Source: a virus. Taken from it: a stretch of 64,000 bases of DNA. How positions within the stretch are numbered: the stretch's first letter is position 1; each line of letters begins with the position of its first letter. Location of the stretch: the IMG/VR virus record IMGVR_UViG_3300025104_000001, positions 1-64,000 of that record; one strand, given 5' to 3'. This document shows, piece by piece, positions 1,351 through 49,060 of this stretch. The notes beneath the pieces were generated by a model. It made no database searches. It was not told the origin of the DNA and worked only from the letters and a program-made list of their open reading frames with translations. The position numbers and the translations under genes were made by a program.

Positions 1351-1358
1351 GATAAATA
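1351..1358 (+). promoter_or_regulatory. Putative late promoter GATAAATA
   Basis: One mismatch from the T4 late -10 box TATAAATA, 28 bases before the ATG at 1387. Its placement suggests late expression of the following two genes, which fits the capsid-targeting-like N-terminus of the first. Confidence 0.55.
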
Positions 1359-1386: not shown

Positions 1387-2457
1387 ATGCTAATATCATT
1401 CGGCGAATTTCTAAACGAGGGTGGCAACGTCAAAATCGGTGACGTGGAAGCCACCCGTATCAATCTCAAGGAAGTAGACCGAAAAGACATCGTAAGGATG
1501 CTTGAAAGGTCTCTTGCCGTTATCAACGCTCACTACAAACGTTTTTCGGGTGAGCCTCTTTGGGTCAAAGAACTATTCAAGTCAAAGAAGTTCCTATCTG
1601 GTTCTTCTTTGCATTTCTTCGACCGTAAGATTCCAGACAAAGTATTCGTTGAAAAGAAACCTACTGTTGGTGACATTGATACTCAAATCAACAAGTCCAT
1701 GGCTGAACAGGTAAAGAAGTGGCTCGATTCATTGCATGGCACCAAGCTAGGGTATCTAACATTCGTTGGCTACAAATCTTCTGCGGGCCAATATATCACT
1801 TTGTGGACGATTGACAAATATAACCTGAACATTCAGATTGACCTAGAGCTGGTTGATTATGAAAACAATATGCCTACTGCATGGAGCTCATTCTCTCATA
1901 GCTCATCTTGGGCAGACATTCAGGCATCAATTAAGGGCGTGTTCCACAAGTACATTCTCCGTGCTTTGACAAGCAAGAACATGAGAGAAATTACTTTGTT
2001 GAAGGGTAAGAAGGAAACGCCTACAAAAATAATGACAGGCGAACATTCATTCTCCGTTGCATTGGGTCTTCGTCGGAAACTCCAACAAACAGAAACTCCT
2101 GGCGTGTATCGTGAGATTGCAACCAAAGACTCAAAATACATTACCGACCTGCAGGAAATCTTCAAGACTCTATTCGGTCATTTGCCCAATGCTTCAGAGC
2201 TGGAGCAATTTGAATCTTATGTAGGCGTTTTGAAACTTATCAAGAAGTATTTTACCCCGTCAGAAATTGATAACGTAATTCTAGGATTCTCTTTGCTTCT
2301 ATGGGGCCAAGGCGCACAAGGCCTAGTTCGTGGAAATCCAGAAGAAGATTTTGAGACAAAAAAGGTAGCCTATGATATGATGTTGAAGGAATTGGGTAGA
2401 AAACAACCCAAGGAAGTAGACGCAATGATTGATTCTTACTACAAAGCTTACAAGTAA
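1387..2457 (+). CDS. Nucleotidyltransferase-like protein with capsid-targeting-type N-terminus
   Basis: 356-residue protein of unknown function. A Pol-beta-type nucleotidyltransferase pattern is visible: GSS at 72-74, DID at 96-98 and IDLE near 151-154 as the possible third carboxylate. The family transfers nucleotides to proteins, nucleic acids or small molecules; the substrate here is unknown. The first residues (ISFGEFLNEGG) resemble T4 internal-protein leader peptides, with a possible prohead-protease cut after FLNE. A late-type promoter lies just upstream. The next gene starts on the base after its stop codon, so the two are probably co-translated. The fold is moderately supported; packaging into the head is inference. 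Confidence 0.6.
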   Translation: MLISFGEFLNEGGNVKIGDVEATRINLKEVDRKDIVRMLERSLAVINAHYKRFSGEPLWVKELFKSKKFLSGSSLHFFDRKIPDKVFVEKKPTVGDIDTQINKSMAEQVKKWLDSLHGTKLGYLTFVGYKSSAGQYITLWTIDKYNLNIQIDLELVDYENNMPTAWSSFSHSSSWADIQASIKGVFHKYILRALTSKNMREITLLKGKKETPTKIMTGEHSFSVALGLRRKLQQTETPGVYREIATKDSKYITDLQEIFKTLFGHLPNASELEQFESYVGVLKLIKKYFTPSEIDNVILGFSLLLWGQGAQGLVRGNPEEDFETKKVAYDMMLKELGRKQPKEVDAMIDSYYKAYK

Positions 2458-3774
2458 ATGGCATCAACTGGTCTAACCAAATTCAACAAATACTTCAGGG
2501 GTAAAGGCGAGGTTGAAACCTTTGCTAAGGGTGAAAAAGGCAAAGACGTCACCGTCTATGAATCTGTTGATGGCAACAAGAAAGTAGATACCTTGAAAGA
2601 CGGTACGCCCATTACCGTTATTGTGGGAAAGGAGTTTCAGAAGCGTTACTTCATCAAATACAAGGGCGGGATGGGTTACATCAGTGACAATAACACGGGT
2701 AAGCCCATCCCTTCCAAGTCAAAGGTGAATGCAGAGCTTTCACGAATTACCGCAAGCGACTTCATCGGAGGCGGGAAGTCCGTCAAATTCAAGTTCATCG
2801 ACCAAGAAGTCGAATGCATGGAATTCATTTCAAAGGATCAGCTTGCGAATTCCATCATTGATTCGATGAAGAAAGTTCGAGGTGTCAGTGACGAGGTTAG
2901 AGAAACTTTTGAACCTTGGCTAAAGGGCAACTTGGGTGACTTTCATTGGGTTACTGGCGTGGCGCCTGAAGAGAAAAACAAATTCGGCGTATACTTCGGC
3001 GAATTGTTCATCGGACTATTTGCTCTTGCAAACAAGACCGCGAATCATGTTACACCCACTCCGTGGCGTGGTAAGGTCAAACGATTCTTGATGCCAACCG
3101 ACCCTTCATTCTCCGGCGTTGATTCGTTCATCGAGTTGGAAGATGGAGAGATTGTTCCGATCTCAAACAAATTCGGTACAGGTGCTGCTGCTTCATTCTT
3201 CAGCAACCTCCTAATCAAGGGTTTGCAATATCACAAGAAACTCCCCAAGTGTATCTTCAAAGACATTGTAGAGACCGCTTTGGACATTGGTGTAACGATT
3301 CAACACCTTGAGAAGAAACAAAAAGCAAAGCCAATTCTTTATGAGTACGGCATTCGTCATGTATTGGGTTTGAACAAGCAGCAGGTTAGAGACACCTACG
3401 AAGTTTTCACGGCCATCAAAATGAAAAAGAATTTTGATGAGAAAAACCTCGTCATTTCAGCTATTGCCAATCGCCGAGGTGTAGACAAACGTATCGTAGA
3501 TTTGCTTGAAGATTCGGTTACCGCCTTTTTCTGTCGAGAGATTGCCGATATGTTGGAAGGCGACAAGGTTAGCATGGACACTATGAAGGAAATCCTTGCA
3601 GGTAAGAGTTATTGGCAGGCCAACCTTCAGATGAACGATTGGGAGAATGGTAAGGTGAAATTCAAGCTGGTCAATTCAGGTTCAGCCAAGCTACAAATCA
3701 TCGGCTCAAAGGCTGCTATGAATGACGTTGAAGCGAAGCAGGGAATGATCAATTATCGACTAACCGTTGGATGA
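2458..3774 (+). CDS. Conserved phage protein of unknown function, possible SH3-like N-terminus
   Basis: 438 residues, not assigned to a characterised family. The N-terminal 80 residues (VTVYESVDG, KRYFIKYKGGMGYI) look like a small beta-barrel of SH3 type; the rest is mixed alpha/beta with no recognised catalytic motif. The start is an ATG directly after the TAA of the preceding gene, indicating translational coupling. The pair may be partners, since one has a nucleotidyltransferase signature and this one could be its target, antidote or structural companion. That is speculation. It reads away from two hairpins near 3785-3875. Confidence 0.55.
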   Translation: MASTGLTKFNKYFRGKGEVETFAKGEKGKDVTVYESVDGNKKVDTLKDGTPITVIVGKEFQKRYFIKYKGGMGYISDNNTGKPIPSKSKVNAELSRITASDFIGGGKSVKFKFIDQEVECMEFISKDQLANSIIDSMKKVRGVSDEVRETFEPWLKGNLGDFHWVTGVAPEEKNKFGVYFGELFIGLFALANKTANHVTPTPWRGKVKRFLMPTDPSFSGVDSFIELEDGEIVPISNKFGTGAAASFFSNLLIKGLQYHKKLPKCIFKDIVETALDIGVTIQHLEKKQKAKPILYEYGIRHVLGLNKQQVRDTYEVFTAIKMKKNFDEKNLVISAIANRRGVDKRIVDLLEDSVTAFFCREIADMLEGDKVSMDTMKEILAGKSYWQANLQMNDWENGKVKFKLVNSGSAKLQIIGSKAAMNDVEAKQGMINYRLTVG

Positions 3775-3784
3775 AGAGCAGAAC

Positions 3785-3875
3785 TGGCCCACCCAGCACA
3801 CTCTTTAAAAATGTTTTAGATGGGCCAAGTCTTAAGAAGAATCATTCTTGGTGGTCATTGTAGCACACGACCACC
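3785..3875. terminator. Two hairpins between convergent genes
   Basis: TGGCCCA (3785-3791) pairs with TGGGCCA (3821-3827), and GGTGGTC (3850-3856) pairs with GACCACC (3869-3875). They sit between a plus-strand and a minus-strand gene that converge. Neither has a strong T-run, so a role in termination or mRNA 3' protection is only likely by position. Confidence 0.35.
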
Positions 3876-3886
3876 GAATTCTTATA

Positions 3887-4321
3887 TCATTCGTTCAGCA
3901 GTTTCGGTGAATCAACCTTCTTTGAGCCGTTCACAACCAACTTCTTAGAAAAACCAGAAACGCGCTTTAGTTTTACGGTCAACATACCGTTATCCAAATC
4001 TGCCGATTCTGCTTCTAGGTGTTTGCTAATACGGAAATCCAACTGGAATTTTCTGCGAGCGATGCCATGCTGAATAAAGTCATAATCTGTAGGGCGTTCT
4101 TTTACGGAACCTTTAATGCGAAGATTGTCGTCCGTAAATTCAACATCTAATTCATCTTGGTCGTATCCTGCCACAGCGACTTCAATTATCACTTCATTAC
4201 CATCTTTAGATCGAAGGATGTTGTAAGGAGGAAACGACTGTTTGGAAGGAATGAACACTGCCTGATTTAAAAACTCGTCAAGCGCGCTAAAGGTTTCAAA
4301 AGGTGATTTATATAGAGACAT
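3887..4321 (-). CDS. Small heat-shock protein (Hsp20/alpha-crystallin family)
   Basis: ATP-independent holdase chaperone that binds unfolding proteins. The 144-residue product has a short N-terminal arm, an alpha-crystallin domain (VAGYDQDELDVEF, then DNGMLTVKL in the place of the usual ENGxLxI strand) and a short tail. The chosen ATG at 4321 has a perfect GGAGGAG ribosome-binding site; an upstream in-frame ATG would lie in the promoter region. A perfect late promoter (4399-4406) lies upstream, so it is probably made during virion assembly. Hsp20 genes recur in T4-like phages, especially marine ones, but the client is unknown. Confidence 0.9.
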   Translation of the reverse strand: MSLYKSPFETFSALDEFLNQAVFIPSKQSFPPYNILRSKDGNEVIIEVAVAGYDQDELDVEFTDDNLRIKGSVKERPTDYDFIQHGIARRKFQLDFRISKHLEAESADLDNGMLTVKLKRVSGFSKKLVVNGSKKVDSPKLLNE

Positions 4322-4398
4322 ATCTCCTCCTTTGAGCAAGATAGTTACGATGAAATGGTCATCGCAGCCAATCAGTTCTAAATGAACCTGATACACAT

Positions 4399-4406
4399 AT
4401 TTATAC
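4399..4406 (-). promoter_or_regulatory. Late promoter TATAAATA
   Basis: Exact T4 late box on the minus strand, upstream of the small heat-shock gene, and back-to-back with another late box on the plus strand at 4428. Confidence 0.75.
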
Positions 4407-4427
4407 AAGAAATCTCTTTATTCCGGT

Positions 4428-4435
4428 ATAAATAT
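4428..4435 (+). promoter_or_regulatory. Late promoter TATAAATA
   Basis: Exact late box on the plus strand in the divergent intergenic region, reading towards the ligase-like gene at 4543. A second, early-type -10 (TATAAT, 4471-4476) lies between this box and the gene, so it may be expressed both early and late. Confidence 0.65.
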
Positions 4436-4542
4436 TCAAAATCTTATAGATTCAACCTAGTAGTTTCCGTTATAATGTCTATAAGAAAGGATGTTGACAT
4501 TAGTCTGGATGTTGGCGCACCAAGAGACTTAGGGGTACAGTA

Positions 4543-5433
4543 ATGGGATTCGAGAAGTATCTACAAGAGGCTGAGATTGCAGCATCAAAACGCAAAGGCA
4601 TAATGCATCTAGAAAAAGCCAAGCCATCGGAGTTCTTAGAGCTCGCCCGTGACATTATGAAATCAGGCAACGGGCAAATGAAAGACGTGAAAATCAGCTT
4701 GAAGGTTGACGGTGCTGGTATTCGTTTCGGCAAAGACTCTCAAGGTCGATTCTTCTTTGAAACATCACGCTCTGGCCCTATTCAACAGAAGAAGGCATTT
4801 ACAGCGCACGCTTCACAAAAGGATGGCGTAGACCTAACCAGAGCCAACCATTATGATGATATGTATGACCACATCGAAGCTTCGAATCTCTGGAAAGATT
4901 TGCCTCCAGATACGAAGGTTGTGGCTGAAATATTGTATAATCCGATGGCAGAGATTCTACAGGATAAGATCAAGTTTGTTTCTGTCGCCTATGACAAGAG
5001 CAAGTTGGGTTCTCTAATGACCATCATCCCGCTTGATGTTGTTGTCTCATCCACGGGCAAGACGCATGATGACAAAGACAAGATCATCGAAGGTCTCTTG
5101 AAGAAATCGAATTCTGAAATCAAGGTCGAAAGTGCGAACCTACAAGGAACAACGCTTAATGTCGAAACAATCCTCAAGCCAATCTTTGCACTTGGTTCAG
5201 ACATTGATAGCGTTCTGGCTTCTCGTAAGGCTAGCGACAAAGCGAAGAAAGAACTCTATCAGATCGTGATTCAAAATGTCAAGGATCAATTGGCTAAATT
5301 CATCTTGAATCACCCTGAGATTGTAGGAAAGGATAAATTCGGCCCAGAGATTGAAGGTTTGGTTCTTGACTTGGGTAATAGACAATTCAAGGTGACGACT
5401 TCAGCATTTAAGGCATCGAAGCAAAAGGTATAA
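4543..5433 (+). CDS. Covalent nucleotidyltransferase (RNA/DNA ligase-like)
   Basis: 296-residue protein with the motif set of ATP-dependent ligases and capping enzymes. KVDG at 54-57 supplies the AMP-accepting lysine, with Arg61 nearby; VVAEILY at 126-132 fits motif III, EGLVL at 271-275 motif IV, and FKVTTSAFK near the C-terminus motif V. Such enzymes seal nucleic acids through a lysyl-AMP intermediate. T4 RNA ligases work with PseT, and a PseT homologue is present at 51.0 kb. The N-terminus MGFEKYLQEAE resembles a capsid-targeting peptide with a cut after YLQE, so it may be carried in the head. Substrate (RNA or DNA) is undetermined. Confidence 0.65.
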   Translation: MGFEKYLQEAEIAASKRKGIMHLEKAKPSEFLELARDIMKSGNGQMKDVKISLKVDGAGIRFGKDSQGRFFFETSRSGPIQQKKAFTAHASQKDGVDLTRANHYDDMYDHIEASNLWKDLPPDTKVVAEILYNPMAEILQDKIKFVSVAYDKSKLGSLMTIIPLDVVVSSTGKTHDDKDKIIEGLLKKSNSEIKVESANLQGTTLNVETILKPIFALGSDIDSVLASRKASDKAKKELYQIVIQNVKDQLAKFILNHPEIVGKDKFGPEIEGLVLDLGNRQFKVTTSAFKASKQKV

Positions 5434-5434
5434 C

Positions 5435-5944
5435 ATGAAAACATTTGTGACGTCCGACTCGCACTTCGGGCACCGAAATATCATTAAGTATTGTAATAGA
5501 CCGTTTAAATCAGTAGAGGAGATGGATTATGCCTTGGAGTCTATTTGGAATAGCTTGGTCGGCCCTGAAGACATTGTTTTTCATCTTGGTGATGTTACAC
5601 TTGCTGGTCCTGATAGGTGCGGCGATCTTCTTAATCGTCTGAACGGTAAAAAGATTCTGATTGCAGGGAATCATGACAGAAAATCAATTCAGAACCTCGG
5701 ATGTTGGAAGAAGGTTTGTGAGAACTTCAATTTCAACTACAAAGGCATAGATGTTCATATGCAACATGTGCCGTGGGTCAAGATGAACCCAGGGCATTTG
5801 TACTTGCACGGCCATTGCCACGGAACATTGGGTACGTGGAACAAAGGTCAAATTGACGTAGGTGTGGATTGTTGGGATTATGCGCCTGTTGAGTTGGAAG
5901 AGCTAATAGAATTCTGGAGAACAATGAAAAATGACAACGATTAA
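5435..5944 (+). CDS. Calcineurin-like metallophosphoesterase
   Basis: 169-residue single-domain phosphoesterase. All metal-binding motifs are visible: DSHFGH (8-13), LGDV (51-54), GNHD (78-81) and GHCH (126-129). It is expected to bind two divalent metals and cleave a phosphodiester or phosphomonoester; the compact form resembles YfcE/phage families whose substrates are mostly unknown. It starts one base after the ligase-like gene stops, so both are likely one operon and could act on the same nucleic-acid end. A bidirectional terminator follows. Confidence 0.85.
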   Translation: MKTFVTSDSHFGHRNIIKYCNRPFKSVEEMDYALESIWNSLVGPEDIVFHLGDVTLAGPDRCGDLLNRLNGKKILIAGNHDRKSIQNLGCWKKVCENFNFNYKGIDVHMQHVPWVKMNPGHLYLHGHCHGTLGTWNKGQIDVGVDCWDYAPVELEELIEFWRTMKNDND

Positions 5945-5996
5945 AGGAATGGTATATGATTCGTTTGGTTTGCCTGCATTTTGTCTAGACAAAAGG

Positions 5997-6024
5997 AAAG
6001 CTCCGAAAGGAGCTTTCTCTTTTT
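5997..6024. terminator. Bidirectional intrinsic terminator
   Basis: Eight-base stem AAAGCTCC/GGAGCTTT with a GAAA tetraloop, followed on the plus strand by CTCTTTTT and flanked by A-rich sequence that gives a U-run on the minus strand. It separates the convergent phosphoesterase and Dps genes. Confidence 0.85.
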
Positions 6025-6027
6025 GAA

Positions 6028-6456
6028 TCATGTCTTGGTTGATTTAAGTTTCCACGCAAATTTATCCAATTGTGAGATGATTTCTTGAACCATGTTTGAG
6101 GACGTTTCGTCTAGAGAATTCAAAAGCTTAGTAAGATCTTCAGTGGATAACAATTTCAATACCATATCAATGTTTCTATCTTCATCTGATGAGGGTGAAG
6201 GTATTTTAGACCCCTCGATACTAATTAATGCTTTATCGTTGATAGCCATAATTCTTTCTGCTATCACGTCAATTTGCTCATTTGAATAGTCGTAAATCTC
6301 TCCAAAAAGAGCATGAAGTTCTAAGAAGTTCTTTCCCCTAACGTTCCAATGCGCTGATTGCGATGCTCTTCTAATATCCTCTAATTTAGTCAAAATTGAA
6401 GATAGTTTTTTAGACGCATCTCTTTCTTCATTCAAAAACCTTGTAAAGCTTTTCAT
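6028..6456 (-). CDS. dps: Dps-like ferritin-family protein with capsid-targeting-type N-terminus
   Basis: 142-residue Dps/ferritin fold protein. Dps proteins form dodecamers that oxidise iron with peroxide, store it and can shield DNA. The ferroxidase residues are all present with exactly the E. coli spacing: His36 (AHWN), His48 (ELHALF), Asp63 and Glu67 (IDVIAERI). The N-terminus MKSFTRFLNEE closely resembles the MKTYQEFIAEA type leader of T4 internal head proteins, with a plausible gp21 cleavage after FLNE. It lies beside the major capsid gene. This suggests a Dps packaged inside the phage head, where it could protect DNA or act on entry. Family is sure; packaging is inferred. Confidence 0.85.
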   Translation of the reverse strand: MKSFTRFLNEERDASKKLSSILTKLEDIRRASQSAHWNVRGKNFLELHALFGEIYDYSNEQIDVIAERIMAINDKALISIEGSKIPSPSSDEDRNIDMVLKLLSTEDLTKLLNSLDETSSNMVQEIISQLDKFAWKLKSTKT

Positions 6457-6505
6457 TTTCGTCTTCCGTTCTTATCTAAGGGCTTCTCAATATCCATTTC
6501 TAGAC

Positions 6506-6532
6506 AAAAAAGAGCCCTTGCGGGCTCTTTTT
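6506..6532. terminator. Intrinsic terminator after gene 23
   Basis: Eleven-base stem AAAAAGAGCCC/GGGCTCTTTTT with loop TTGC, giving a U-run in both directions. It lies just past the capsid stop codon (minus strand) and upstream of dps. Confidence 0.9.
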
Positions 6533-6550
6533 GATGAAACAACATGCAAA

Positions 6551-7939
6551 TTACATGATGTTCTTGACTGCAGCGATACGGTAGTAACCGTTCTGACGAG
6601 TCCCACCATTGTAGAATGGGTTTGCGACCTTACCATAACGAGTTTTGAAGGCTAGCTTTGGCTGGAAGCTGGCTTGGTCAACTGCACGGTACATTTGTAG
6701 TGGAACGTATGGGCAGTAGAAGTAACCTGCATCGAATGGGCTGTCGCCTTTGTAGCCAACCATGAAGAAGTTAGCTTGTGCATAAGGATCAACATACACC
6801 TTCATACGGCCACCGATGGTACCAACGAAAGTTGACTGGGTCCAATCGGAAGTAACGTTCACTTCTAGAGCGCTTGTTGAAAGGATGTTTGCCATCGCTA
6901 GAGCGGATGCCACGTCTGCGGAAACCACTAGGATGTTGCCTTTACCACGACGAGTGTCAGTGGCGATCTTGTTTGCATCGCGCTCGATCTGGAAGTGTAG
7001 GCCCTTGAAACGTTCTGCTGACCAACGACCATCTGCATCGGCTTGTAGGTCGAACACACCAGGCATTGTGGTATCTTCAACTGCACCTAGCTTAGCCTGA
7101 GCATATAGGGTACGTAGGAATTCCCGGTTGATTTCTGCAAGGATCTCGTTGCTTAGAACGTTTGCCAATTCAGTTTCTGCATCAAGACCATGAACTGCTT
7201 GCATGTCTTGTGCCAATTCAACTGAATACTCAGCCTTCAATGCACGAGTCACTGCAGTAACGCTGATCTTTTCGATTGACACTGCCATTTGAGCAGAAAT
7301 GTCACCTTCGCCTGTTGCAACATCGACGCCGCCGCCGGTGTTTGCCGCGAACGCGAGGTTCACTGCAGTAGCGGTAGCAGTAGCGTTTGCGCTTAGTTCA
7401 AAGGTTGTACCGTTGGTGATAGATGCCACTGTTGCGCCATCTGGAACACCCGCACCGTAAACCAACATACCAACACGTAGGTCGGAAGTGTCAGCCACGG
7501 TAACCGTTGCATCGCCAGCGGTTGTAGCAGCAGCCTTAACGCCTGCAAACATACCTTCGCTGTGAGTGCCTTGACCTGAGAAGTTGGTCAATGCTTCATT
7601 GAACAGTGCTTCTGGGCCTGATTGGTTGTTGTAACGGCTACGTAGAGCGAACACCAAACCAGTAGGCATTGACATTGGCTGAACACCGGCAATGTCGAAA
7701 GCGATCATTGATGGCATTGCACGGCGTACTAGACCGATTAGGACTGGATCCCACTTTGACACACCGCCGGTCACGTTGGTTGGGGTTGCCTCATGTAGGT
7801 GCTTGTTGTTCTCTTGGTTCTCTAGTAGAACAGCAGTGACGGCTTTACGATAAGGATCGCTAATTGGTGCTAGGTCAGCATGTTCCAACACTGGTGCCCA
7901 CTTTTTCACTAGAGCATCTTCTTGAAGAAAATTTTCCAT
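6551..7939 (-). CDS. 23: Major capsid protein gp23
   Basis: 462-residue precursor of the hexameric head shell subunit. T4-type landmarks: an acidic leader, the processing site HLHE/ATPTNVTGG after Glu50, then WDPVLIGLVRRAMP and a C-terminal RQNGYYRIA segment. The gp21 protease should remove residues 1-50. Residues about 143-197 form an extra module (VGMLVYGAGVPDG...) absent from the T4 core fold and shared with the sheath protein of this phage; it is probably exposed on the capsid surface. An exact late promoter is 37 bases upstream of the ATG and a strong terminator follows, matching its role as the most abundant product. Confidence 0.98.
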   Translation of the reverse strand: MENFLQEDALVKKWAPVLEHADLAPISDPYRKAVTAVLLENQENNKHLHEATPTNVTGGVSKWDPVLIGLVRRAMPSMIAFDIAGVQPMSMPTGLVFALRSRYNNQSGPEALFNEALTNFSGQGTHSEGMFAGVKAAATTAGDATVTVADTSDLRVGMLVYGAGVPDGATVASITNGTTFELSANATATATAVNLAFAANTGGGVDVATGEGDISAQMAVSIEKISVTAVTRALKAEYSVELAQDMQAVHGLDAETELANVLSNEILAEINREFLRTLYAQAKLGAVEDTTMPGVFDLQADADGRWSAERFKGLHFQIERDANKIATDTRRGKGNILVVSADVASALAMANILSTSALEVNVTSDWTQSTFVGTIGGRMKVYVDPYAQANFFMVGYKGDSPFDAGYFYCPYVPLQMYRAVDQASFQPKLAFKTRYGKVANPFYNGGTRQNGYYRIAAVKNIM

Positions 7940-7990: not shown

Positions 7991-8854
7991 TTATTTCTTA
8001 ACAGATTTTGAAATCATGCTTGCATATGCTTGGATGCTTGCAGGAATTTCTTGTTTCTGTTCAGAGATAATCTCTTCTTTCTGTTCTTCTGAAACAGACG
8101 CATCATTCTTGAAGTATGCCTCCTTAATTAGGGTGACACCTTTCTCGAATTCCTCGGCGGTTTCAAATTTCTTTGATTCAACAAGACCCTTTAGTTTTTC
8201 AACGTCAAGTTCCGTCATGCCTTCAGTAATCTTCTTGAATGCCAATTGGCGTCGAGCTTGGTCTAGCTCTTCGCTAATTACCACATTCTTCCTTGCAAGT
8301 GCTTTGACGTCCTCTTCCAAAGCTGCAACCTTTTCCATTAGTTCGTCAACCATAGAGGTTTGTTCTTCTGGAATGTTGAAATTGTGCTCAAGGAATAGGT
8401 CACGCAAACCACCGATGAAACTTTCCATAATGTCAAGTTTCACTTGTTGTTTCAAAGCAACTTCATTCTTGGAAGCCCATTCTTCAACAACATAGCTCAA
8501 GTAAGCATCAGCTTCTTCCTTCAACTCGGCTTCTTTGGCGTCGATTGCAGACTTCATTTCTTCTTCAAGTTTTGCCTTGATTTCAGAAACTCTCTTATCT
8601 GTTTCGTAGCCTACAGCAGCCTCGAATAGAATCTTTAGCTTGTCCTGTGCCTCCTCTGAAAGTTGAGTGCCTTCAAACATAGCAACCAAGTGCTGTTGAT
8701 AGCCTTCTTCTTTCAACTCTTTTTCTTCTTCATCGTCTTCATCGTCTTCGTCATCTTCCATATCTTCAGTATCGGAAGTTTTTGCTTCCTCTTCAGATAG
8801 GAGTTCCTTCAACGCTTGAAGTCTTTTTTGCTTTTCGTCTTCAGATAGTTGCAT
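7991..8854 (-). CDS. 22: Prohead core scaffolding protein gp22
   Basis: 287-residue scaffold that fills the prohead and directs capsid assembly, then is degraded by gp21. It is almost all charged helix and coiled coil, with an extreme acidic run (Asp/Glu) around residues 30-45 and several LxE-type protease sites such as LLSE. The start is ATG 8854 (MQLSED), preceded by GAGGA at good spacing; a TTG 15 bases upstream lacks this. Position between 21 and 23 is exactly as in T4. A late-type box lies inside the end of gene 21. Confidence 0.93.
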   Translation of the reverse strand: MQLSEDEKQKRLQALKELLSEEEAKTSDTEDMEDDEDDEDDEEEKELKEEGYQQHLVAMFEGTQLSEEAQDKLKILFEAAVGYETDKRVSEIKAKLEEEMKSAIDAKEAELKEEADAYLSYVVEEWASKNEVALKQQVKLDIMESFIGGLRDLFLEHNFNIPEEQTSMVDELMEKVAALEEDVKALARKNVVISEELDQARRQLAFKKITEGMTELDVEKLKGLVESKKFETAEEFEKGVTLIKEAYFKNDASVSEEQKEEIISEQKQEIPASIQAYASMISKSVKK

Positions 8855-8885: not shown

Positions 8886-9545
8886 TCAATGTTTATTTAT
8901 CAATTGTGCTAAAACATTCTTAACTGACTCAAGCATTGCTTTTTCTCTTTCAGCGCGATTAGCAATGCGCTTTGCTCGTTTCTTGGCTTGCAAGAAAGAA
9001 ACAAATTCCTCATAAAGCAACGTATCATGCAAAAGTGCATCCAATGCCTGTTCATTTTCATAAACTGCTGTAACCAGAGCCTTGGGGGCTGAAGGGTTCA
9101 TAACTGCATCAACAGTGTGTAATTTGAAATCTTCACAAACCTCTGAAACGCCTTCTTTCAGGGTTCTTACTGAACCCGAACCTCTGGTAGATACACCCAA
9201 CACCACGCCACCTTCCAACATGGCTTGCATGATTTTACCGCATGGGGTATCCAGCACTTTAGCTCGACCGATGTAATCTTTGCCTTGTTTTGTCATTGAT
9301 TCAATCAAGATCGCTACACGGTCTGGATTGATTTGAGGGCTATTGGGGTGAGACAATTCACCAACCGCTCTCTTAGTATTTACATATTCGGAAACGAAGG
9401 AATTTACTTCTCTATCAAGGATGCTTTCTCTGTAGATACGCCTGTTCTTGTTTATCACTTCGGCTTGTGCAAACACGCCTTCGATAAACCAAGCTTGTCC
9501 TTCTTTCTTGCTTTCTGCAATTAGTTCGTTTTCGATTAATAGCAT
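8886..9545 (-). CDS. 21: Prohead core protease gp21
   Basis: 219-residue serine protease that matures the prohead by cutting scaffold, capsid precursor and internal proteins. The herpesvirus-assemblin-like catalytic set is visible: His66 in VGELSHP, Ser119 in GVSTRGSGS, and the DAVMNPSAP segment. A likely self-cleavage site, ELIAE, occurs at residues 7-11, and the basic C-terminal tail may be trimmed too. It is the enzyme expected to process the capsid-targeting-like leaders seen on several genes here. Ends with codons that double as the gene 22 promoter. Confidence 0.95.
   Translation of the reverse strand: MLLIENELIAESKKEGQAWFIEGVFAQAEVINKNRRIYRESILDREVNSFVSEYVNTKRAVGELSHPNSPQINPDRVAILIESMTKQGKDYIGRAKVLDTPCGKIMQAMLEGGVVLGVSTRGSGSVRTLKEGVSEVCEDFKLHTVDAVMNPSAPKALVTAVYENEQALDALLHDTLLYEEFVSFLQAKKRAKRIANRAEREKAMLESVKNVLAQLINKH
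8894..8901 (-). promoter_or_regulatory. Putative late promoter GATAAATA of gene 22
   Basis: One mismatch from TATAAATA, embedded in the last codons of gene 21 and 40 bases before the gene 22 start. The coding sequence of 21 and the promoter share the same bases. Confidence 0.6.
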
Positions 9546-9547
9546 TT

Positions 9548-9880
9548 TTATTTTCCGTATAGTGTTTTCATGCGAACCTTAGAGCGAATCATCGATCTCT
9601 TGGCTTTTATTTTGCGTGCCGATTTACCAACACGCCAAGCCTTACGAGCGGCTCTTCTTCTCGCTCTTTTTTCTTTTTGGGTCATCCTAACGAATTTGAT
9701 TCGATTGCCTTGGCGAACAACCTTATAGCCTTTTCGTTTCACTTTCACTTTACGGACAATCTTGCCCTTGCGAACAACTCGCTTCATTGCAACTTCATCA
9801 AGAAATTCGAGATGATGTGAAGCCTTCCAGTTTTCTAAAAGAGCATCCAGTTTAGCAAGAATTTCTGATTTGTCGAACAT
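9548..9880 (-). CDS. 68: Prohead core protein gp68
   Basis: 110-residue minor core protein. The first 30 residues are mildly acidic and end in HLEFLDE/VAMKR, a good gp21 cut site; the remainder is extremely basic (KGKIVRKVKVKRKG and an Arg/Lys-rich tail). After cleavage the basic part could stay with packaged DNA. Order 67-68-21-22-23 is conserved in T4-like phages and supports the assignment more than sequence identity alone. Confidence 0.85.
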   Translation of the reverse strand: MFDKSEILAKLDALLENWKASHHLEFLDEVAMKRVVRKGKIVRKVKVKRKGYKVVRQGNRIKFVRMTQKEKRARRRAARKAWRVGKSARKIKAKRSMIRSKVRMKTLYGK

Positions 9881-9881
9881 A

Positions 9882-10349
9882 TTATTTCTTCAACCCTACG
9901 TTTCCGCAAGCTGTAACGTCAACTGAATATGAACCATCTTGGCCCTTAGTTGCAACAACTTTGCCGTTCATTTTTAGAACGCCCGTTTCGTTGTCAAAAT
10001 CAAATTCTTGATCTAGATAATTGTTGTCAGCAAACCAATTCAAAACAGCATCCATGTCCTTCAGTTGGAGAGGTGCTTCGCTTTCCTTGACTCCCAACAT
10101 CTTTTCAAGGGCTTTCTCGGTCACGACCACCAAATCCTTAGAACCCATTTCCTTAACGAAAGCCTGTGCTTTAGCCTTTGATGCAAATGGGCCACCCACA
10201 ACATCTTCAGTTTCTTTGTCAAACACGAAGAAAGCTTCTTCGTTTAGCGAATCAAACATTGCCTGGGCCATTTCGTGGCGCAACATCTCAATCTTCTCGT
10301 GAGCTTTTTCTTGAAGGCTCAAAACAAGTTGTTCTTTGTTGAATAGCAT
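9882..10349 (-). CDS. 67: Prohead core protein gp67-like
   Basis: 155 residues, about twice T4 gp67 (80). The N-terminal half is helical and ends in DSLNEEAF, a plausible protease site. The C-terminal half contains a compact alpha/beta segment (FFVFDKETEDVVGGPF, SKAKAQAFVKEM) that T4 lacks. Assignment rests mainly on position between portal gene 20 and gene 68. An exact late promoter sits 29 bases upstream. Role expected: internal core component shaping the prohead. Confidence 0.75.
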   Translation of the reverse strand: MLFNKEQLVLSLQEKAHEKIEMLRHEMAQAMFDSLNEEAFFVFDKETEDVVGGPFASKAKAQAFVKEMGSKDLVVVTEKALEKMLGVKESEAPLQLKDMDAVLNWFADNNYLDQEFDFDNETGVLKMNGKVVATKGQDGSYSVDVTACGNVGLKK

Positions 10350-12553: not shown

Positions 12554-14464
12554 TTAAGCAATCTCTTCGAAGGCAACACCTGTTGGGGTTGCCACAAAAT
12601 TCAACTGAATAAAGTTGATTGAACGTGCAGGCTTGATGTAGATATCAGCGACAAACCCGTTTGAATCAATAACTTCTGGAGTGTTGTTTGTTGTATCGCA
12701 AACAACTTTGAAGCCCGTTACACCACGGCGTCCTTGAATGTCACGAAGGAATGGCTCAACCATACCAACGAAACGACCACGGGTGAAGGTGTCGTTGAAT
12801 TCAAACATTTGATACTTGGCAGCAGTAGCGATTGCCTTCTCTAGAACGATAAACAAACGGCGCACGTTGATGCGGTCGAATGCACTTGGCTTAGCCTGCA
12901 ATGTCTTGTCACCGAATAGGATAACACCTTCACCAACTTGGCTGGTTACTGGGTTAACGCCATTCACATACAAGGTGTCGCGTTCTGCCTTAGCACCTGG
13001 GTTGTAAGCCAGCTTGATAACGTTCTTGATGAAGCCACGGTTCAAGCCTGCTGGTGAGTACCAAGGATCGGCAACACTGTCAGTGTATGCACACAAACCT
13101 GCAATGTCACCTGATAGTGGAACCCAACGCATCTGGTCATTGTAACGGTCATACATTAGCTTCCAGCCGCTATCTAGAACGGCATATGAGCTTGATGTTA
13201 GTAAATTGCGGAAGTTCAAGATTGCTTGTAGTTCATTCCCCTTATTGTTCACCACAGCATTACGTGGGGGTGAAATCAGTGCAATGCAATCCTTACGAAC
13301 GTTCGCCACGTTTTCGATAACGTAGTTTGAAAGGGCTTGCTGGTCATCTTGGTTGTCTAGACCAGCAACGATCACCAGTGAAACGTCGATTGCCTCTGCC
13401 CTGCTGAACACTTCGTAACCAGCCATGCGCTTGCCAACTGTCACGCCTGTGGTGTTATCAGAAACACCGCCTGTTAGAACCACGCTAACTGGAGCGCTTA
13501 GTGATGAGAAGTTTGAACTTGAATCACCACCCCAGCCTGAAACCTCGTGGGTACCGCCGAACCAAACATACTTGGAATTGCGATTTAGAACATCTGAGTA
13601 GTAAGAAGAAGCGCCTGTATAATCCTTGGCGTCGTAAGCCTTTGATAGACCAACATAACGCTCTAGAACTGTACCAGCAGTGCCTGTCCAAAGACCTAGT
13701 TCGTCAACAACAACCAAGTGCAACTCATCGTTTGAACCACCCTTGGATGCAACGTATGAGCTTGTACCGGGAACACCGGTGTAAGATGTGAAGGTCAACG
13801 CCACATTTGCGCCGGTTGCTGTAGCAGGAGCGGTCAAAGTGATTTTGGTTGCAGAGTCAATTGATAGAATCTTTGCGCCCGAAGGGATGCCAACACCTGT
13901 TACTGACATGCCAACCACTAGGTTGGCTGTGCTTTGTGGAGAAACAAAAGTCACCACATCAGAATTATTGGTGGTAGAAGCGGTCTTATTCAAGGTTACT
14001 GAAGAACCGAACAATGAACGATATTCCCACGTTTCAAAGGTTGCAGAGTCTGCAAATGAAACACGAATTGAATTGCCGAGAGTGCCTGGATATTTGGCGA
14101 TAAACTTCACGCCAGTTAGACCCGAAACCTTTGATTCATAGTCAATGCTGTTTTCGATAACAGGCGCAACAGTGCCACCATTATAAGCGTTTGTGGCTGA
14201 ATTCCCAACCACACGAACAACGCGAAGGTTGTTTGAATATGCCAAGAAAGATGCTGCAGTGAAAAAGTCTGTGGCAGTGTCTGCATCGGGTTCTCCGAAG
14301 ATAGAAACCAAAGTCTTTTCGGAGTCAACGATTGTTGCCTCGTTCACCGGGCCCCATTTGAATACACCAGAGAAAGCCCCGATAGAAGTGGCTACGGCTG
14401 GCACAATCAGTGTAAGGTCGGTTTCCCTTACTTCCACTGACGGAGAAAGACTGAAAATTGCCAT
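12554..14464 (-). CDS. 18: Tail sheath protein gp18
   Basis: 636-residue contractile sheath subunit. N-terminal SPSVEVRETDLT and the C-terminal domain (FNDTFTRGRFVGMVEPFLRD and following) are typical. Residues about 156-226 carry an inserted beta-rich module (LVVGMSVTGVGIPSG) that matches an insertion in this phage's capsid protein. It lies in the region where T4 gp18 has its outward-facing domains, so it is likely surface-exposed. A late-type box lies upstream at 14509. Confidence 0.97.
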   Translation of the reverse strand: MAIFSLSPSVEVRETDLTLIVPAVATSIGAFSGVFKWGPVNEATIVDSEKTLVSIFGEPDADTATDFFTAASFLAYSNNLRVVRVVGNSATNAYNGGTVAPVIENSIDYESKVSGLTGVKFIAKYPGTLGNSIRVSFADSATFETWEYRSLFGSSVTLNKTASTTNNSDVVTFVSPQSTANLVVGMSVTGVGIPSGAKILSIDSATKITLTAPATATGANVALTFTSYTGVPGTSSYVASKGGSNDELHLVVVDELGLWTGTAGTVLERYVGLSKAYDAKDYTGASSYYSDVLNRNSKYVWFGGTHEVSGWGGDSSSNFSSLSAPVSVVLTGGVSDNTTGVTVGKRMAGYEVFSRAEAIDVSLVIVAGLDNQDDQQALSNYVIENVANVRKDCIALISPPRNAVVNNKGNELQAILNFRNLLTSSSYAVLDSGWKLMYDRYNDQMRWVPLSGDIAGLCAYTDSVADPWYSPAGLNRGFIKNVIKLAYNPGAKAERDTLYVNGVNPVTSQVGEGVILFGDKTLQAKPSAFDRINVRRLFIVLEKAIATAAKYQMFEFNDTFTRGRFVGMVEPFLRDIQGRRGVTGFKVVCDTTNNTPEVIDSNGFVADIYIKPARSINFIQLNFVATPTGVAFEEIA

Positions 14465-38892: not shown

Positions 38893-39193
38893 TTTTACCT
38901 CTACCTCTACGCTTAGCCTTTGGTGCTTCTTCTGCAATTACTTCTACGGGTTGTTCGTCTGCAATGGCGGCTTCCCCTTGGACTGTTTCATCAATCACGG
39001 CATCTTCCACGACTTCTGAAATCACGGCTTCAGCAGTAGGGACCTCGACCAATTGTTCTTCGACTTTGGGAAGAGGTTTAACACCGCCACGAACTGAAAC
39101 AAGCAATTCGCCTGTTACTGGATGACGCCAGCCACGGTCGCTCGGCACAGCATCGGGGCACCAGCTTGGCGGAAAATTAACAATATTCCTCAT
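38882..39193 (-). CDS. Conserved T4-family protein with Ala/Glu-rich tail
   Basis: 103 residues. First 40 residues (FPPSWCPDAVPSDRGWRHPVTGELLVS) are a compact motif conserved in T4-like phages; the rest is low-complexity Val/Glu/Ala with a final basic KAKRRGRGKNVA. Composition suggests a linker to a DNA- or protein-binding tail. Function unknown; neighbours suggest a late or virion-related role. Confidence 0.6.
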   Translation of the reverse strand: MRNIVNFPPSWCPDAVPSDRGWRHPVTGELLVSVRGGVKPLPKVEEQLVEVPTAEAVISEVVEDAVIDETVQGEAAIADEQPVEVIAEEAPKAKRRGRGKNVA

Positions 39194-39779
39194 TTAGCAT
39201 ATCTCCTAGAAAGTTTTCCAATAGTTCATCCAATTCTTCGTTTAGGACGTCCTGTAGTAATTTATACAATTCTTGGGTGTCCTTTTCCGATGCTTTCTTA
39301 GGCATGCCTTTTCTGAATGATGCATAATCACCCACCTTGACAAAACCTCTCATCTTGGAAGCACTCATGCCTGTTGCATCATCGGCGTCAGGGTCGCGTT
39401 CGCCTGCGCTAATCAATTCAACAACATCAAAGCGTGTCTTGTTACGTTCGGCTATGTCTTTGTAACCTTCCATTCGGTCAGAGCCAGCAAAGAAGTAAAC
39501 TTCTTTGAATCCGTTGTTTGCAATCCAAGTGAATGCATTGATAGGTGTCTTGACATTTGGATCATCCACAAATGTCACTTCAGGAAAGAACTTCTTTGCC
39601 ATTTTGATTTTCACATCAAACGGCAAAGGGTTCTTTTTCTTATCAACGGTTCTAGACAGGAACAATACAGGCATGCCACCTATCTTCTTAGCATGTGCAA
39701 CCAATTTGTCTATAAGTAACTGATGACCTGATGTTGGTGGATTCATCCTACCAAAGGCAAATACAATCTTATCTTTCAT
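39177..39779 (-). CDS. Nucleotidylyltransferase (NMNAT/cytidylyltransferase fold), late-expressed
   Basis: 200 residues from ATG 39779. The N-terminus FAFGRMNPPTSGHQLLI carries the (H/T)xGH-type nucleotide motif, and SASKMRG is the ISSTxxR-like motif, both typical of adenylyl/cytidylyltransferases. A late-type box at 39814-39821 would initiate transcription downstream of the longer frame's ATG (39812), supporting the shorter start. The C-terminal helix ends NFLGDMLNEEYC with protease-like LNE. A late nucleotidylyltransferase is unusual and may be carried in the virion. Confidence 0.75.
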   Translation of the reverse strand: MKDKIVFAFGRMNPPTSGHQLLIDKLVAHAKKIGGMPVLFLSRTVDKKKNPLPFDVKIKMAKKFFPEVTFVDDPNVKTPINAFTWIANNGFKEVYFFAGSDRMEGYKDIAERNKTRFDVVELISAGERDPDADDATGMSASKMRGFVKVGDYASFRKGMPKKASEKDTQELYKLLQDVLNEELDELLENFLGDMLNEEYC

Positions 39780-39813
39780 TAGTGTTATCCAGTCATGGTT
39801 GATGTTTTTCATT

Positions 39814-47940: not shown

Positions 47941-48790
47941 TACCGCTTACATCATCTCATACCTGCCTAATGATTCTCTCAAGGCCAGGCGCCTTGAGAT
48001 TCATAACAAACAGGTTGACTATTGGCTGGCTAAGGGTTTGAACGTCTTGGTGTATGCCCAAGGATATCAACAAGACGACTTCCGAAAGGACGTCCAGTAT
48101 ATCGTCAATACCCGAGGCGAAACCGATAGGCCCGGGCCCGCTCGTAACGTCTTGCTCCGTGCTTTTTATGATTCGGATGAAGACTTTTGTTTGTTGATGG
48201 ACAACGACATTGTTCTCTATGAGGGTGAGAAGTATTGTGATAGTGACAACCTTGTTCAAATCTTAAAAGACATTCCTCTTGAAAGCCTAGAAGGTGTAGA
48301 TGTATTTGAGCCTTTGAATCCTACACAAACACCTTTCAGTGCTTTCTATGCCGAAAAGAAGGATGTGCTAGCTAACAACCTAATCTTCAAGCGTCGTCCG
48401 AACATCTCAGGATGTTGTTTGTTCATTAGAAATTTCAAGAAGTTTGGTGAAGAGCCATTCTTCTATAATGATTGGTTTGATGAAAAGACAGGTAAGGTTA
48501 TCATGGGAGAAGATGTTGCCTTCGGTCTTAACCTCACGAAAAAGGGCAAGGGTGTCTATTCTTTGATGAATGCCGTCCGAAAGGACATGGGGTGGACGTC
48601 GAGCTCTTGGTGCAAGAGCCCTGAAATCAGAAAGCAATCATTTGAAACTCTGAAGGCGATCCTACCGACTTTGGGAGTGGGAACCAAGAACGGGAACCTA
48701 GATTGGGCAGGTTTCGCCGATCGCTACAAGATCCCACGACAAGTTCTAGCCCCCAAGAAAAAATCCGCAAGCATCCTAGACATGATGTGA
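47930..48790 (+). CDS. GT-A-type glycosyltransferase-like protein
   Basis: 286 residues. GT2/GT-A pattern: AYIISYLPNDS start, PGPARNVLLRAFYD and the metal-binding DxD as MDNDIVL (91-93), later GEDVAFGLNLTKKG like the catalytic ED. Overlaps queC by 11 bases, so it is the last gene of the modification block. T4 glucosylates its modified cytosines; by analogy this enzyme could decorate a deazaguanine in DNA, but protein or other targets are possible. Its last codons contain an early promoter. Confidence 0.7.
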   Translation: MLFNTAYIISYLPNDSLKARRLEIHNKQVDYWLAKGLNVLVYAQGYQQDDFRKDVQYIVNTRGETDRPGPARNVLLRAFYDSDEDFCLLMDNDIVLYEGEKYCDSDNLVQILKDIPLESLEGVDVFEPLNPTQTPFSAFYAEKKDVLANNLIFKRRPNISGCCLFIRNFKKFGEEPFFYNDWFDEKTGKVIMGEDVAFGLNLTKKGKGVYSLMNAVRKDMGWTSSSWCKSPEIRKQSFETLKAILPTLGVGTKNGNLDWAGFADRYKIPRQVLAPKKKSASILDMM

Positions 48791-48805
48791 TTCTTGCCTT
48801 ATAAT
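48776..48805 (+). promoter_or_regulatory. Early promoter CTAGACA-N17-TATAAT
   Basis: -35-like 48776-48782 and -10 48800-48805; leader near-identical to that at 26481-26510. Drives the small gene at 48836. Confidence 0.75.
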
Positions 48806-48835
48806 GCAGTCATTGTTGAACGGAGGACCTAGATC

Positions 48836-49060
48836 GTGTTTCAAGACGAAGCTCTCAAAGAACTTCAAGCTCGTAACGAGGCGCGTGTCAAACAAATGAT
48901 TGAGCAGATGGGCACAAAGTATCTGTGCCATCCTGCAAATTTCATCACCAAGGCAAAGTTCAAGAAAGACCTGCGTAAATCCAAAAAGAAGGCGATGTCG
49001 ATGTCTAAGGACAAGAACCTAAGTTTCGTAGTGCAAAACACTCCAGAAGGTCAAATCTGA
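48836..49060 (+). CDS. Small basic early protein
   Basis: 74 residues from GTG 48836, eight bases after GGAGGA. N-terminal helix MFQDEALKELQARNEARVKQ and a Lys-rich middle (KAKFKKDLRKSKKKAMSM). Looks nucleic-acid or protein-binding; function unknown. The promoter, leader and first codons exist as a second copy at 26440-26510 joined to foreign DNA. Confidence 0.6.
   Translation: MFQDEALKELQARNEARVKQMIEQMGTKYLCHPANFITKAKFKKDLRKSKKKAMSMSKDKNLSFVVQNTPEGQI

What the first reader, a model, noticed from the sequence alone, without database searches (positions are those of the whole stretch)
1387..7939. Several enzymes carry capsid-targeting-like leaders and may be packaged in the head
Dps (MKSFTRFLNEE), the nucleotidyltransferase-like gene (ISFGEFLNEGG) and the ligase-like gene (MGFEKYLQEAE) start with short hydrophobic-FL-x-E peptides. 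They resemble T4 internal-protein leaders cut by gp21, and core proteins here show the same cut (EFLDE, SLNEE, HLHE). They flank the head genes; two of them have late-type promoters. If so, the phage injects a Dps, a ligase and a nucleotidyltransferase with its DNA.
Basis: partly seen in the sequence, partly recalled or inferred. Interest (0 to 1): 0.82.

Follow-up and report, generated by a model that had tools for sequence, protein, structure and literature searches.

The report
Phage head packs nucleic-acid repair enzymes
Several enzymes of this T4-like phage, a nucleotidyltransferase, an RNA/DNA-ligase-like protein and probably a Dps, begin with the short removable tag that loads proteins into T4 heads, and comparison with dozens of related phages, some of which fuse the enzymes into one chain with cut sites between them, suggests that the virus carries a small enzyme kit inside its head to deliver with its DNA.

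Summary
All three leaders exist and have the register of the T4 IPIII capsid-targeting sequence: aromatic, two residues, aromatic, I/L/V, any residue, Glu. Three such starts occur among 119 ORFs of the 90.8 kb record; 0.12 are expected (P about 2e-4).

Comparative evidence is much stronger. In 44 distinct homologues of the nucleotidyltransferase, the ORF opens with a 9-18 residue leader ending in [ILV]-x-E directly before an invariant GGN. Leaderless homologues start exactly at M-GGN. Most homologues are fusions of nucleotidyltransferase, ligase and HIGH-type nucleotidylyltransferase. In 38 of 38 an [ILV]xE site lies 7-15 residues before the ligase, most often at the spacing of the window ligase's own leader. 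Standalone ligases beside leadered nucleotidyltransferases carry leaders; those beside leaderless ones do not. Every record of 150 kb or more except one (G013) has a gp21-type S77 protease.

Best explanation: these are packaged, gp21-processed internal proteins, in many relatives supplied as a polyprotein. Packaging and cutting are inferred from sequence; no virion data were reachable. Dps rests on its own leader alone. Function (nucleic-acid end repair during early infection) is a hypothesis. This is a new variant of the T4 internal-protein system.

The parts
1387..1419 (+). Predicted capsid-targeting leader of the nucleotidyltransferase, MLISFGEFLNE, cut predicted after Glu11 (E|GGN)
   Evidence: GGN invariant in 20 aligned homologues; leaderless homologues start M-GGN
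1420..2457 (+). Pol-beta-fold nucleotidyltransferase, mature part (GS...GDID...QIDLE)
   Evidence: A2/A3 invariant residues; AlphaFold pLDDT 93.6, Foldseek best PDB hits DNA polymerase beta / Pol X, E 3.5e-4
1351..1358 (+). GATAAATA, one mismatch to T4 late -10 TATAAATA, 36 nt before the start
2458..3774 (+). 438-aa protein of unknown function without leader; only found relative in Caulobacter phage Cr30
4427..4434 (+). exact TATAAATA late-type promoter element upstream of the ligase
4543..4569 (+). Predicted capsid-targeting leader of the ligase, MGFEKYLQE, cut predicted after Glu9 (E|AE)
   Evidence: distance Glu to conserved Arg17 is 8, the commonest spacing in fused homologues
4570..5433 (+). 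RNA/DNA-ligase-like covalent nucleotidyltransferase, mature part (K54xDG57, E129, E271G272, K283 invariant)
   Evidence: AlphaFold pLDDT 92.7, Foldseek best hits nick-sealing RNA ligases, E 2.8e-5
5435..5944 (+). Calcineurin-like phosphoesterase directly after the ligase, no leader
6427..6456 (-). Predicted capsid-targeting leader of Dps, MKSFTRFLNE, same 10-residue register as T4 IPIII MKTYQEFIAE
6028..6426 (-). Dps/ferritin-like protein, mature part; follows gp23 on the same strand
   Evidence: Pfam Ferritin 1e-10, PDB Dps 2.6e-10
6551..7939 (-). Major capsid protein gp23; propeptide of 50 residues ending HLHE|A
   Evidence: PF07068 5.7e-129
7991..8854 (-). Scaffold protein gp22
   Evidence: PF25623 1.1e-51
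8886..9545 (-). Prohead protease gp21 (S77), predicted to make the cuts
   Evidence: PF03420 4.2e-39
9548..9880 (-). Basic core protein with EFLDE|V
9882..10349 (-). Core protein with SLQE|K and SLNE|E sites; TATAAATA 36 nt upstream
39177..39812 (-). HIGH-type nucleotidylyltransferase related to the third domain of the fused homologues; no N-terminal leader, two LNE sites in its C-terminal tail
   Evidence: hmmsearch 3.4e-10, sequence

Best explanation
The leaders are capsid-targeting propeptides of the T4 internal-protein kind. During head assembly they attach the nucleotidyltransferase, the ligase and (less surely) Dps to the scaffold core; gp21 then cuts after [ILV]xE, freeing mature enzymes beginning GGN, AE and ER inside the head. 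In most relatives of the nucleotidyltransferase the same cargo is one long chain, leader | nucleotidyltransferase | ligase-HIGH nucleotidylyltransferase | further domains, with protease sites at joints. The enzymes would enter the cell with the DNA, as T4 IPs and Alt do. Shown by sequence: leaders, cut-site motifs, boundaries, covariation, the protease gene. Inferred: packaging, cleavage, ejection. Hypothesis: the pair fills and seals broken ends in nucleic acid (host or phage tRNA, or incoming DNA) before phage genes are expressed, and Dps protects or compacts the incoming or packaged DNA.
For: Register match to T4 IPIII positions 4/7/8/10 and enrichment. 44 distinct leadered homologues, position before GGN always E, P3 always L/I/V (29/13/2), against leaderless homologues beginning M-GGN. 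In three fusions the nucleotidyltransferase is internal and the joint still reads LME|GGN or ISE|GGN. 38/38 fused chains have a site 7-15 aa before the ligase, 0.14 expected per window; in a second scan 48 of 50 distinct ligase loci had one, the two misses anchored at the wrong place. Six other phages (five lineages, since L016 and L018 are near-identical) with separate, leadered nucleotidyltransferases have leadered ligases: L011 MLSFKRYLTE|E, L015 MIRSFKEHLVE|D, L262 MTTFKEYLVE|S, L267 MKTFKQFLTE|S, L016/L018 MFNIDSLF[FL]E|S; X1 and Menderavirus lack both. Each of the five phages read has gp23 with its own [LV]xE|[AS]-type site. gp21 and gp23 present in all six named relatives and gp21 in nearly all large records.
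Against: No proteomics. Leaders of the fused homologues (M-x-L-x-E-L-F...) lack the aromatic pair that carries T4 targeting. L016/L018 ligases have F rather than I/L/V at P3. P1' of Dps is Glu, seldom seen among the other sites here. Only one Dps has the leader. Vibrio, Xanthomonas and Stenotrophomonas relatives keep leaderless enzymes, so packaging is not essential to their function. Many IMG/VR records are fragments without the head region. Catalytic activity is untested. The 438-aa neighbour and the HIGH protein of this phage lack N-terminal leaders.
Confidence: 0.82

Rival explanations
1. The leader is only a conserved N-terminal piece of the nucleotidyltransferase and ligase folds, with no role in packaging.
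For: It is short and the homologues are related.
Against: Leader length and sequence vary (9-18 aa) while GGN is invariant; leaderless homologues begin at GGN; the first six residues of the window model are unstructured (pLDDT below 50); the same leader sits on unrelated proteins in G049, G002, X1 and CP220.
Confidence: 0.05
2. The proteins are cut and scaffold-associated, but act inside the prohead or virion (assembly, DNA end protection or repair of packaged DNA) and are not delivered to the host.
For: Neighbourhood of head genes and late promoters; a ligase, a Pol-beta-type enzyme and Dps all make sense on DNA.
Against: T4 IPs and Alt with the same type of leader are ejected (PMC9026906, PMC9391042); the leaderless versions in other T4-like phages presumably act in the cytoplasm.
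Confidence: 0.2
3. Dps carries the motif by chance; only the nucleotidyltransferase and ligase are packaged.
For: One leader among 66 distinct viral Dps ORFs by the strict pattern; P1' Glu.
Against: Ten-residue register identical to IPIII and to the nucleotidyltransferase leader of L267 (MKSFTRFLNE vs MKSFKQFLNE); 0.12 such starts expected in the whole record; position just after gp23.
Confidence: 0.2
4. Cargo acts on host proteins or nucleotides (for example NMPylation, NAD synthesis by the HIGH domain) rather than repairing nucleic acid.
For: Pol-beta-fold transferases and HIGH enzymes include protein- and cofactor-modifying families; X1/Menderavirus HIGH genes resemble NMN adenylyltransferases.
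Against: Closest folds found are DNA Pol beta/X and nick-sealing RNA ligases; ligase motifs are complete.
Confidence: 0.35

Closest known systems
T4 internal proteins IPI/IPII/IPIII and Alt with capsid-targeting sequence (PMC9026906, PMC3012670)
   Same: Short N-terminal leader of the same register, [IL]xE cut by gp21, next to or with late head genes, T4-like phage with gp21/gp22/gp23.
   Different: Cargo is nucleic-acid-type enzymes and Dps rather than small basic inhibitors or an ADP-ribosyltransferase; homologues form multi-enzyme fusions with internal sites.
Polyvalent proteins of phages and plasmids (PMC5512222)
   Same: Several enzymatic domains in one chain predicted to be virion-delivered, including Pol-beta-fold transferases.
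   Different: In that paper release is attributed to peptidase domains carried in the chain; here the joints match the separate gp21 prohead protease of T4-like phages.
Head protein processing in giant phages phiKZ/SPN3US (PMC5694885)
   Same: Prohead protease of the gp21 kind removes propeptides from many ejected proteins.
   Different: Propeptides there are mostly over 100 residues, and I found no report of separate enzymes released from one chain.
RlaP (RNA-ligase-associated Pol-beta) repair pairs described in jumbo phages (PMC7824862)
   Same: A Pol-beta nucleotidyltransferase working beside an RNA ligase.
   Different: No Pfam match of the window nucleotidyltransferase at E up to 1; RlaP is not described there as packaged in the passages read.

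Membership tests
T4-type internal protein (capsid-targeting sequence) | N-terminal leader of 10-19 residues with targeting residues at IPIII positions 4 and 7 | tested here: met
   Dps exact register; nucleotidyltransferase (11 aa) and ligase (9 aa) same spacing counted back from Glu. The ligase leader is one residue below the stated range.
T4-type internal protein (capsid-targeting sequence) | gp21-type cut motif [L/I]xE at the leader end | tested here: met
   LNE, LQE, LNE; conserved in homologues
T4-type internal protein (capsid-targeting sequence) | Phage encodes gp21 protease and gp22 core | tested here: met
   PF03420 4.2e-39, PF25623 1.1e-51
T4-type internal protein (capsid-targeting sequence) | Present in virions with processed N-terminus | not testable with these tools
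T4-type internal protein (capsid-targeting sequence) | Ejected into the host | not testable with these tools
   needs infection experiment
ATP-dependent ligase / covalent nucleotidyltransferase superfamily | Motifs I (KxDG), III, IV (EG), V (K) | tested here: met
   K54, D56, G57, E129, E271, G272, K283 invariant in 19 sequences
ATP-dependent ligase / covalent nucleotidyltransferase superfamily | Fold similar to RNA/DNA ligases | tested here: met
   Foldseek E 2.8e-5, prob 1.0, TM at most about 0.46; no sequence match in PDB
RlaP family | Match to the family profile in Pfam | tested here: not met
   no Pfam family at E up to 1
Pol-beta superfamily nucleotidyltransferase | GS motif, GDxD and third acidic residue | tested here: met
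   G72 S73, G95 D96 D98, D152 invariant; fold hits Pol beta/X E 3.5e-4, low TM 0.31-0.54
Dps | Ferritin-like Dps fold by sequence | tested here: met
   Pfam Ferritin 1e-10, Dps chains 2.6e-10
Dps | Complete ferroxidase ligands | tested here: inconclusive
   H36, H48, D63, E67 kept, but the position that is Asp in LAh_8 and SE131 (four after H48) is Gly52 here
Polyvalent proteins | Multiple enzymatic domains in one chain | tested here: not met
   not met by the window phage, where the genes are separate; met by most of its homologues

The most novel reading that the evidence does not exclude
A widespread group of T4-like phages packages a repair kit (Pol-beta-type transferase, ligase, HIGH nucleotidylyltransferase and variable extra enzymes) as one polyprotein that the prohead protease dismantles inside the head, so that separate active enzymes are injected at time zero; the window phage is the version in which each enzyme carries its own tag, with a Dps added.
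Probability: 0.5. Interest if true: 0.85.

Novelty: new variant of a known kind. Interest (0 to 1): 0.77.

Why it matters
T4 internal proteins have been known for decades, with few cargo functions worked out (IPI, Alt). Here one simple signature predicts cargo in uncultured T4-like phages, names enzymes that would act before any phage gene is expressed, and predicts exact mature N-termini. The fused and split versions amount to a natural experiment that locates the cut sites to the residue. If right, phages carry pre-made ligase and nucleotidyltransferase, presumably against early host nuclease defences, and T4-like heads process enzyme polyproteins. The predictions can be checked by standard virion proteomics in isolates already in hand (Firehammervirus CP220/IBB_35 for the nucleotidyltransferase).

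Tried and rejected
Nucleotide search of the phage collection with the region: no match. Single-sequence scans for ligase and Dps relatives found only a near-identical contig; profile queries were needed. PDB sequence search with ligase and nucleotidyltransferase profiles: nothing useful. A homologous four-gene cassette including the 438-aa protein was considered: phmmer finds only Cr30 as its relative, not the second genes of X1 or Menderavirus (the output was cut before the Vibrio query), so that idea is dropped. NAD-salvage reading considered from X1/Menderavirus annotation; only weak profile matches. PADLOC: no defence match for the four main proteins; the phosphoesterase had one weak hit. 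The looser M-x-L-x-E-L-F leader search works for the G026 cluster (4 vs 0.2 expected) but not in T4 or X1, so it is not used as general evidence. Late promoters upstream of homologues: exact TATAAATA in only 3 of 47 (0.14 expected). Literature searches found no report of packaged ligase or Dps in T4-like phages; the library holds open-access papers only.
Full report
Setting. The window is bases 1-64000 of a 90,767-base uncultured virus record. Gene content is T4-like: gp23 (PF07068), gp22 scaffold, gp21 S77 protease.

Is it more than chance? T4 IPIII needs only its first ten residues for packaging; positions 4 and 7 direct targeting, 8 and 10 direct cutting, and gp21 cuts after L/I-x-E (PMC9026906). 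I turned this into [FYW]xx[FYW][ILV]xE starting at residues 3-5, knowing the window leaders at the time. In T4, 3 of 267 ORFs match: ipII, ipIII and the unknown 61.1. In the window record 3 of 119 match, exactly the three named genes, against 0.116 expected (P 2.4e-4). Other genomes: X1 4 vs 0.21 and CP220 4 vs 0.06, G049 6 vs 0.11 (P 2e-9), G002 4 vs 0.14; pooled over nine genomes 27 vs 1.1, of which three are the window's. G026 and a part of G006 had one each, not significant. ORFs and starts come from a simple caller of my own, so counts are approximate.

Boundary evidence for the nucleotidyltransferase. Relatives in cultured T4-like phages split in two: Vibrio phiKT1024/Va1, Stenotrophomonas Ps15/Moby and Xanthomonas X1 start M-GGN, while Campylobacter CP220 starts MKLSELMFILE|GGN. 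A viral-contig scan gave 80 loci. Among distinct ones, 44 open with a 9-18 residue leader in which E precedes GGN and L, I or V stands two before it (29/13/2), and three start M-GGN. That tally used a filter for [EM]GGN near the start, but the unfiltered listing shows the same for nearly all loci; L052, L056 and L076 have the domain inside a longer protein and the joint reads KLME|GGN, KLME|GGN and PISE|GGN, and L080 is cut by the contig start. GGN is invariant in 20 aligned sequences, leaderless ones included. Removal of Met from M-GGN and removal of the leader from E|GGN would yield the same mature terminus (the first step is general knowledge of methionine aminopeptidase, not tested).

Fused relatives. 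Most of the 44 are chains of about 700-2000 residues: nucleotidyltransferase, ligase (KxDG), HIGH-type domain, then variable cargo such as amidoligase in L019 and an HD domain in L085. All 38 chains with a ligase have an [ILV]xE site 7-15 residues before its conserved Arg, 8 being most common; 0.14 per window is expected. The window ligase's own leader ends 8 residues before the same Arg. A second scan, by ligase profile, found a site in 48 of 50 distinct loci (some shared with the first set); the other two (L291, L323) were anchored wrongly in the nucleotidyltransferase.

Covariation. Where both genes are separate and the nucleotidyltransferase is leadered, the ligase is too: window, L011, L015, L262, L267, and L016/L018 with FxE. 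In X1 and Menderavirus both are leaderless and the ligases start within a few residues of the predicted mature end, M-LVAEKKRK and M-DASPRVGI. L015 has a third, HIGH gene whose leader ends RINE|IVITFGRF. A second Pol-beta-like domain appears as a leadered single gene in G049 and as a domain of the L019 chain, 38% identical.

Protease. gp21 is found in all six named relatives (W01-W06) and, among uncultured records of 150 kb or more with this locus, in all but G013; many shorter ones lack it and are probably fragments, as is G052 at 141 kb. In the five phages examined the major capsid protein itself carries an [LV]xE|[AS] site.

Enzymes. AlphaFold models are confident (pLDDT 93.6 and 92.7); the first six residues of the nucleotidyltransferase are disordered. 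Best structural neighbours are DNA polymerase beta/Pol X and nick-sealing RNA ligases, with low TM-scores, so they are distant members of these superfamilies. All ligase nucleotidyl-transfer motifs are invariant. The window phage has a HIGH-type relative elsewhere, 39177-39812(-), without an N-terminal leader but with two LNE sites in its tail.

Dps. It is a Dps by Pfam and PDB sequence. Its leader is MKSFTRFLNE, against MKTYQEFIAE in IPII/IPIII and MKSFKQFLNE on the L267 nucleotidyltransferase. Homologues in other phages have unrelated N-termini, and among 66 distinct viral Dps ORFs this is the only one matching the strict pattern (two others matched only the looser pattern used). It follows gp23 by about 95 bases on the same strand. 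I judge packaging likely but single-case.

Promoters. TATAAATA stands 44 nt before gp23, 36 nt before a core gene and 116 nt before the ligase; the nucleotidyltransferase has GATAAATA at 36 nt. This agrees with late expression.

Mechanism and limits. Packaging and cutting are inferred from sequence. T4 IPs and Alt are ejected and act at once on the host, IPI on a restriction system and IPIII on an unknown block (PMC3012670, PMC9391042). By analogy the kit here would work before early transcription. A transferase plus ligase suggests end repair of nucleic acid cut by host defence; that step is a guess (about 0.35-0.4). Virion proteomes of Campylobacter relatives exist (PMC3322345, PMC4546147), but the protein tables were not readable here.

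Novelty. The targeting system is known, and multidomain injected proteins are known (PMC5512222). What I did not find reported is this enzyme cargo in T4-like heads, or T4-type protease sites dividing an enzyme polyprotein.

Noticed in passing
T4 NC_000866, 18966-19130(-) (L176): Gene 61.1 of T4 itself (54 aa, unknown) starts MKTFKEFIKE|D, the only other T4 ORF matching the capsid-targeting pattern besides ipII and ipIII; it lies next to 61.2.
   Followed up: partly
L019, L085, L024 fused proteins: Extra domains after the HIGH domain: amidoligase (PF12224) and a second Pol-beta-like domain in L019, HD_4 hydrolase in L085, DUF6321 in L024; some sit behind further leader-like peptides such as RLFNALVRPRRVVE.
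   Followed up: partly
G049:148086-155830 (L348): Four related genes with capsid-targeting starts (MLSFKEYLKE, MSISFKQFLTE, MQSFKQFLQE, MQSFKQFLVE), similar C-terminal ends, one with leucine-rich repeats.
   Followed up: partly
G002:49551-50018(-) and 48051-49034(-) (L355): Leadered DUF5824 protein (4e-21) and a leadered protein weakly similar to the HIGH gene of the window phage.
   Followed up: partly
window 6551-7939 and 12554-14464: gp23 residues 135-229 match a stretch inside the 636-aa ORF 12554-14464 (39% identity), suggesting a shared inserted domain.
   Followed up: no
window 39177-39812(-): HIGH nucleotidylyltransferase with C-terminal VLNE|ELDELLENFLGDMLNE|EYC, possibly a C-terminal propeptide as known for Alt.
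   Followed up: partly
L009:13525-15573 and L204: Cr30 682-aa protein with repeated EISKKTLGSYIKKAS-like units and NE sites; in L204 a Dps domain lies C-terminal to a long protein with similar repeats, another possible packaged chain.
   Followed up: no
window 2458-3774(+): 438-aa protein shared only with Caulobacter phage Cr30; a D...IS.KFG pattern by eye recalls PD-(D/E)XK nucleases, untested.
   Followed up: partly
G000 record 70486-71052(-), beyond the window: ORF starting MKLFRKLPLQSYLFE|GDDD, an LxE end without the aromatic register; could be chance.
   Followed up: no
window 3887-4321(-): Hsp20 gene with TATAAATA 84 nt upstream, back to back with the ligase promoter.
   Followed up: no
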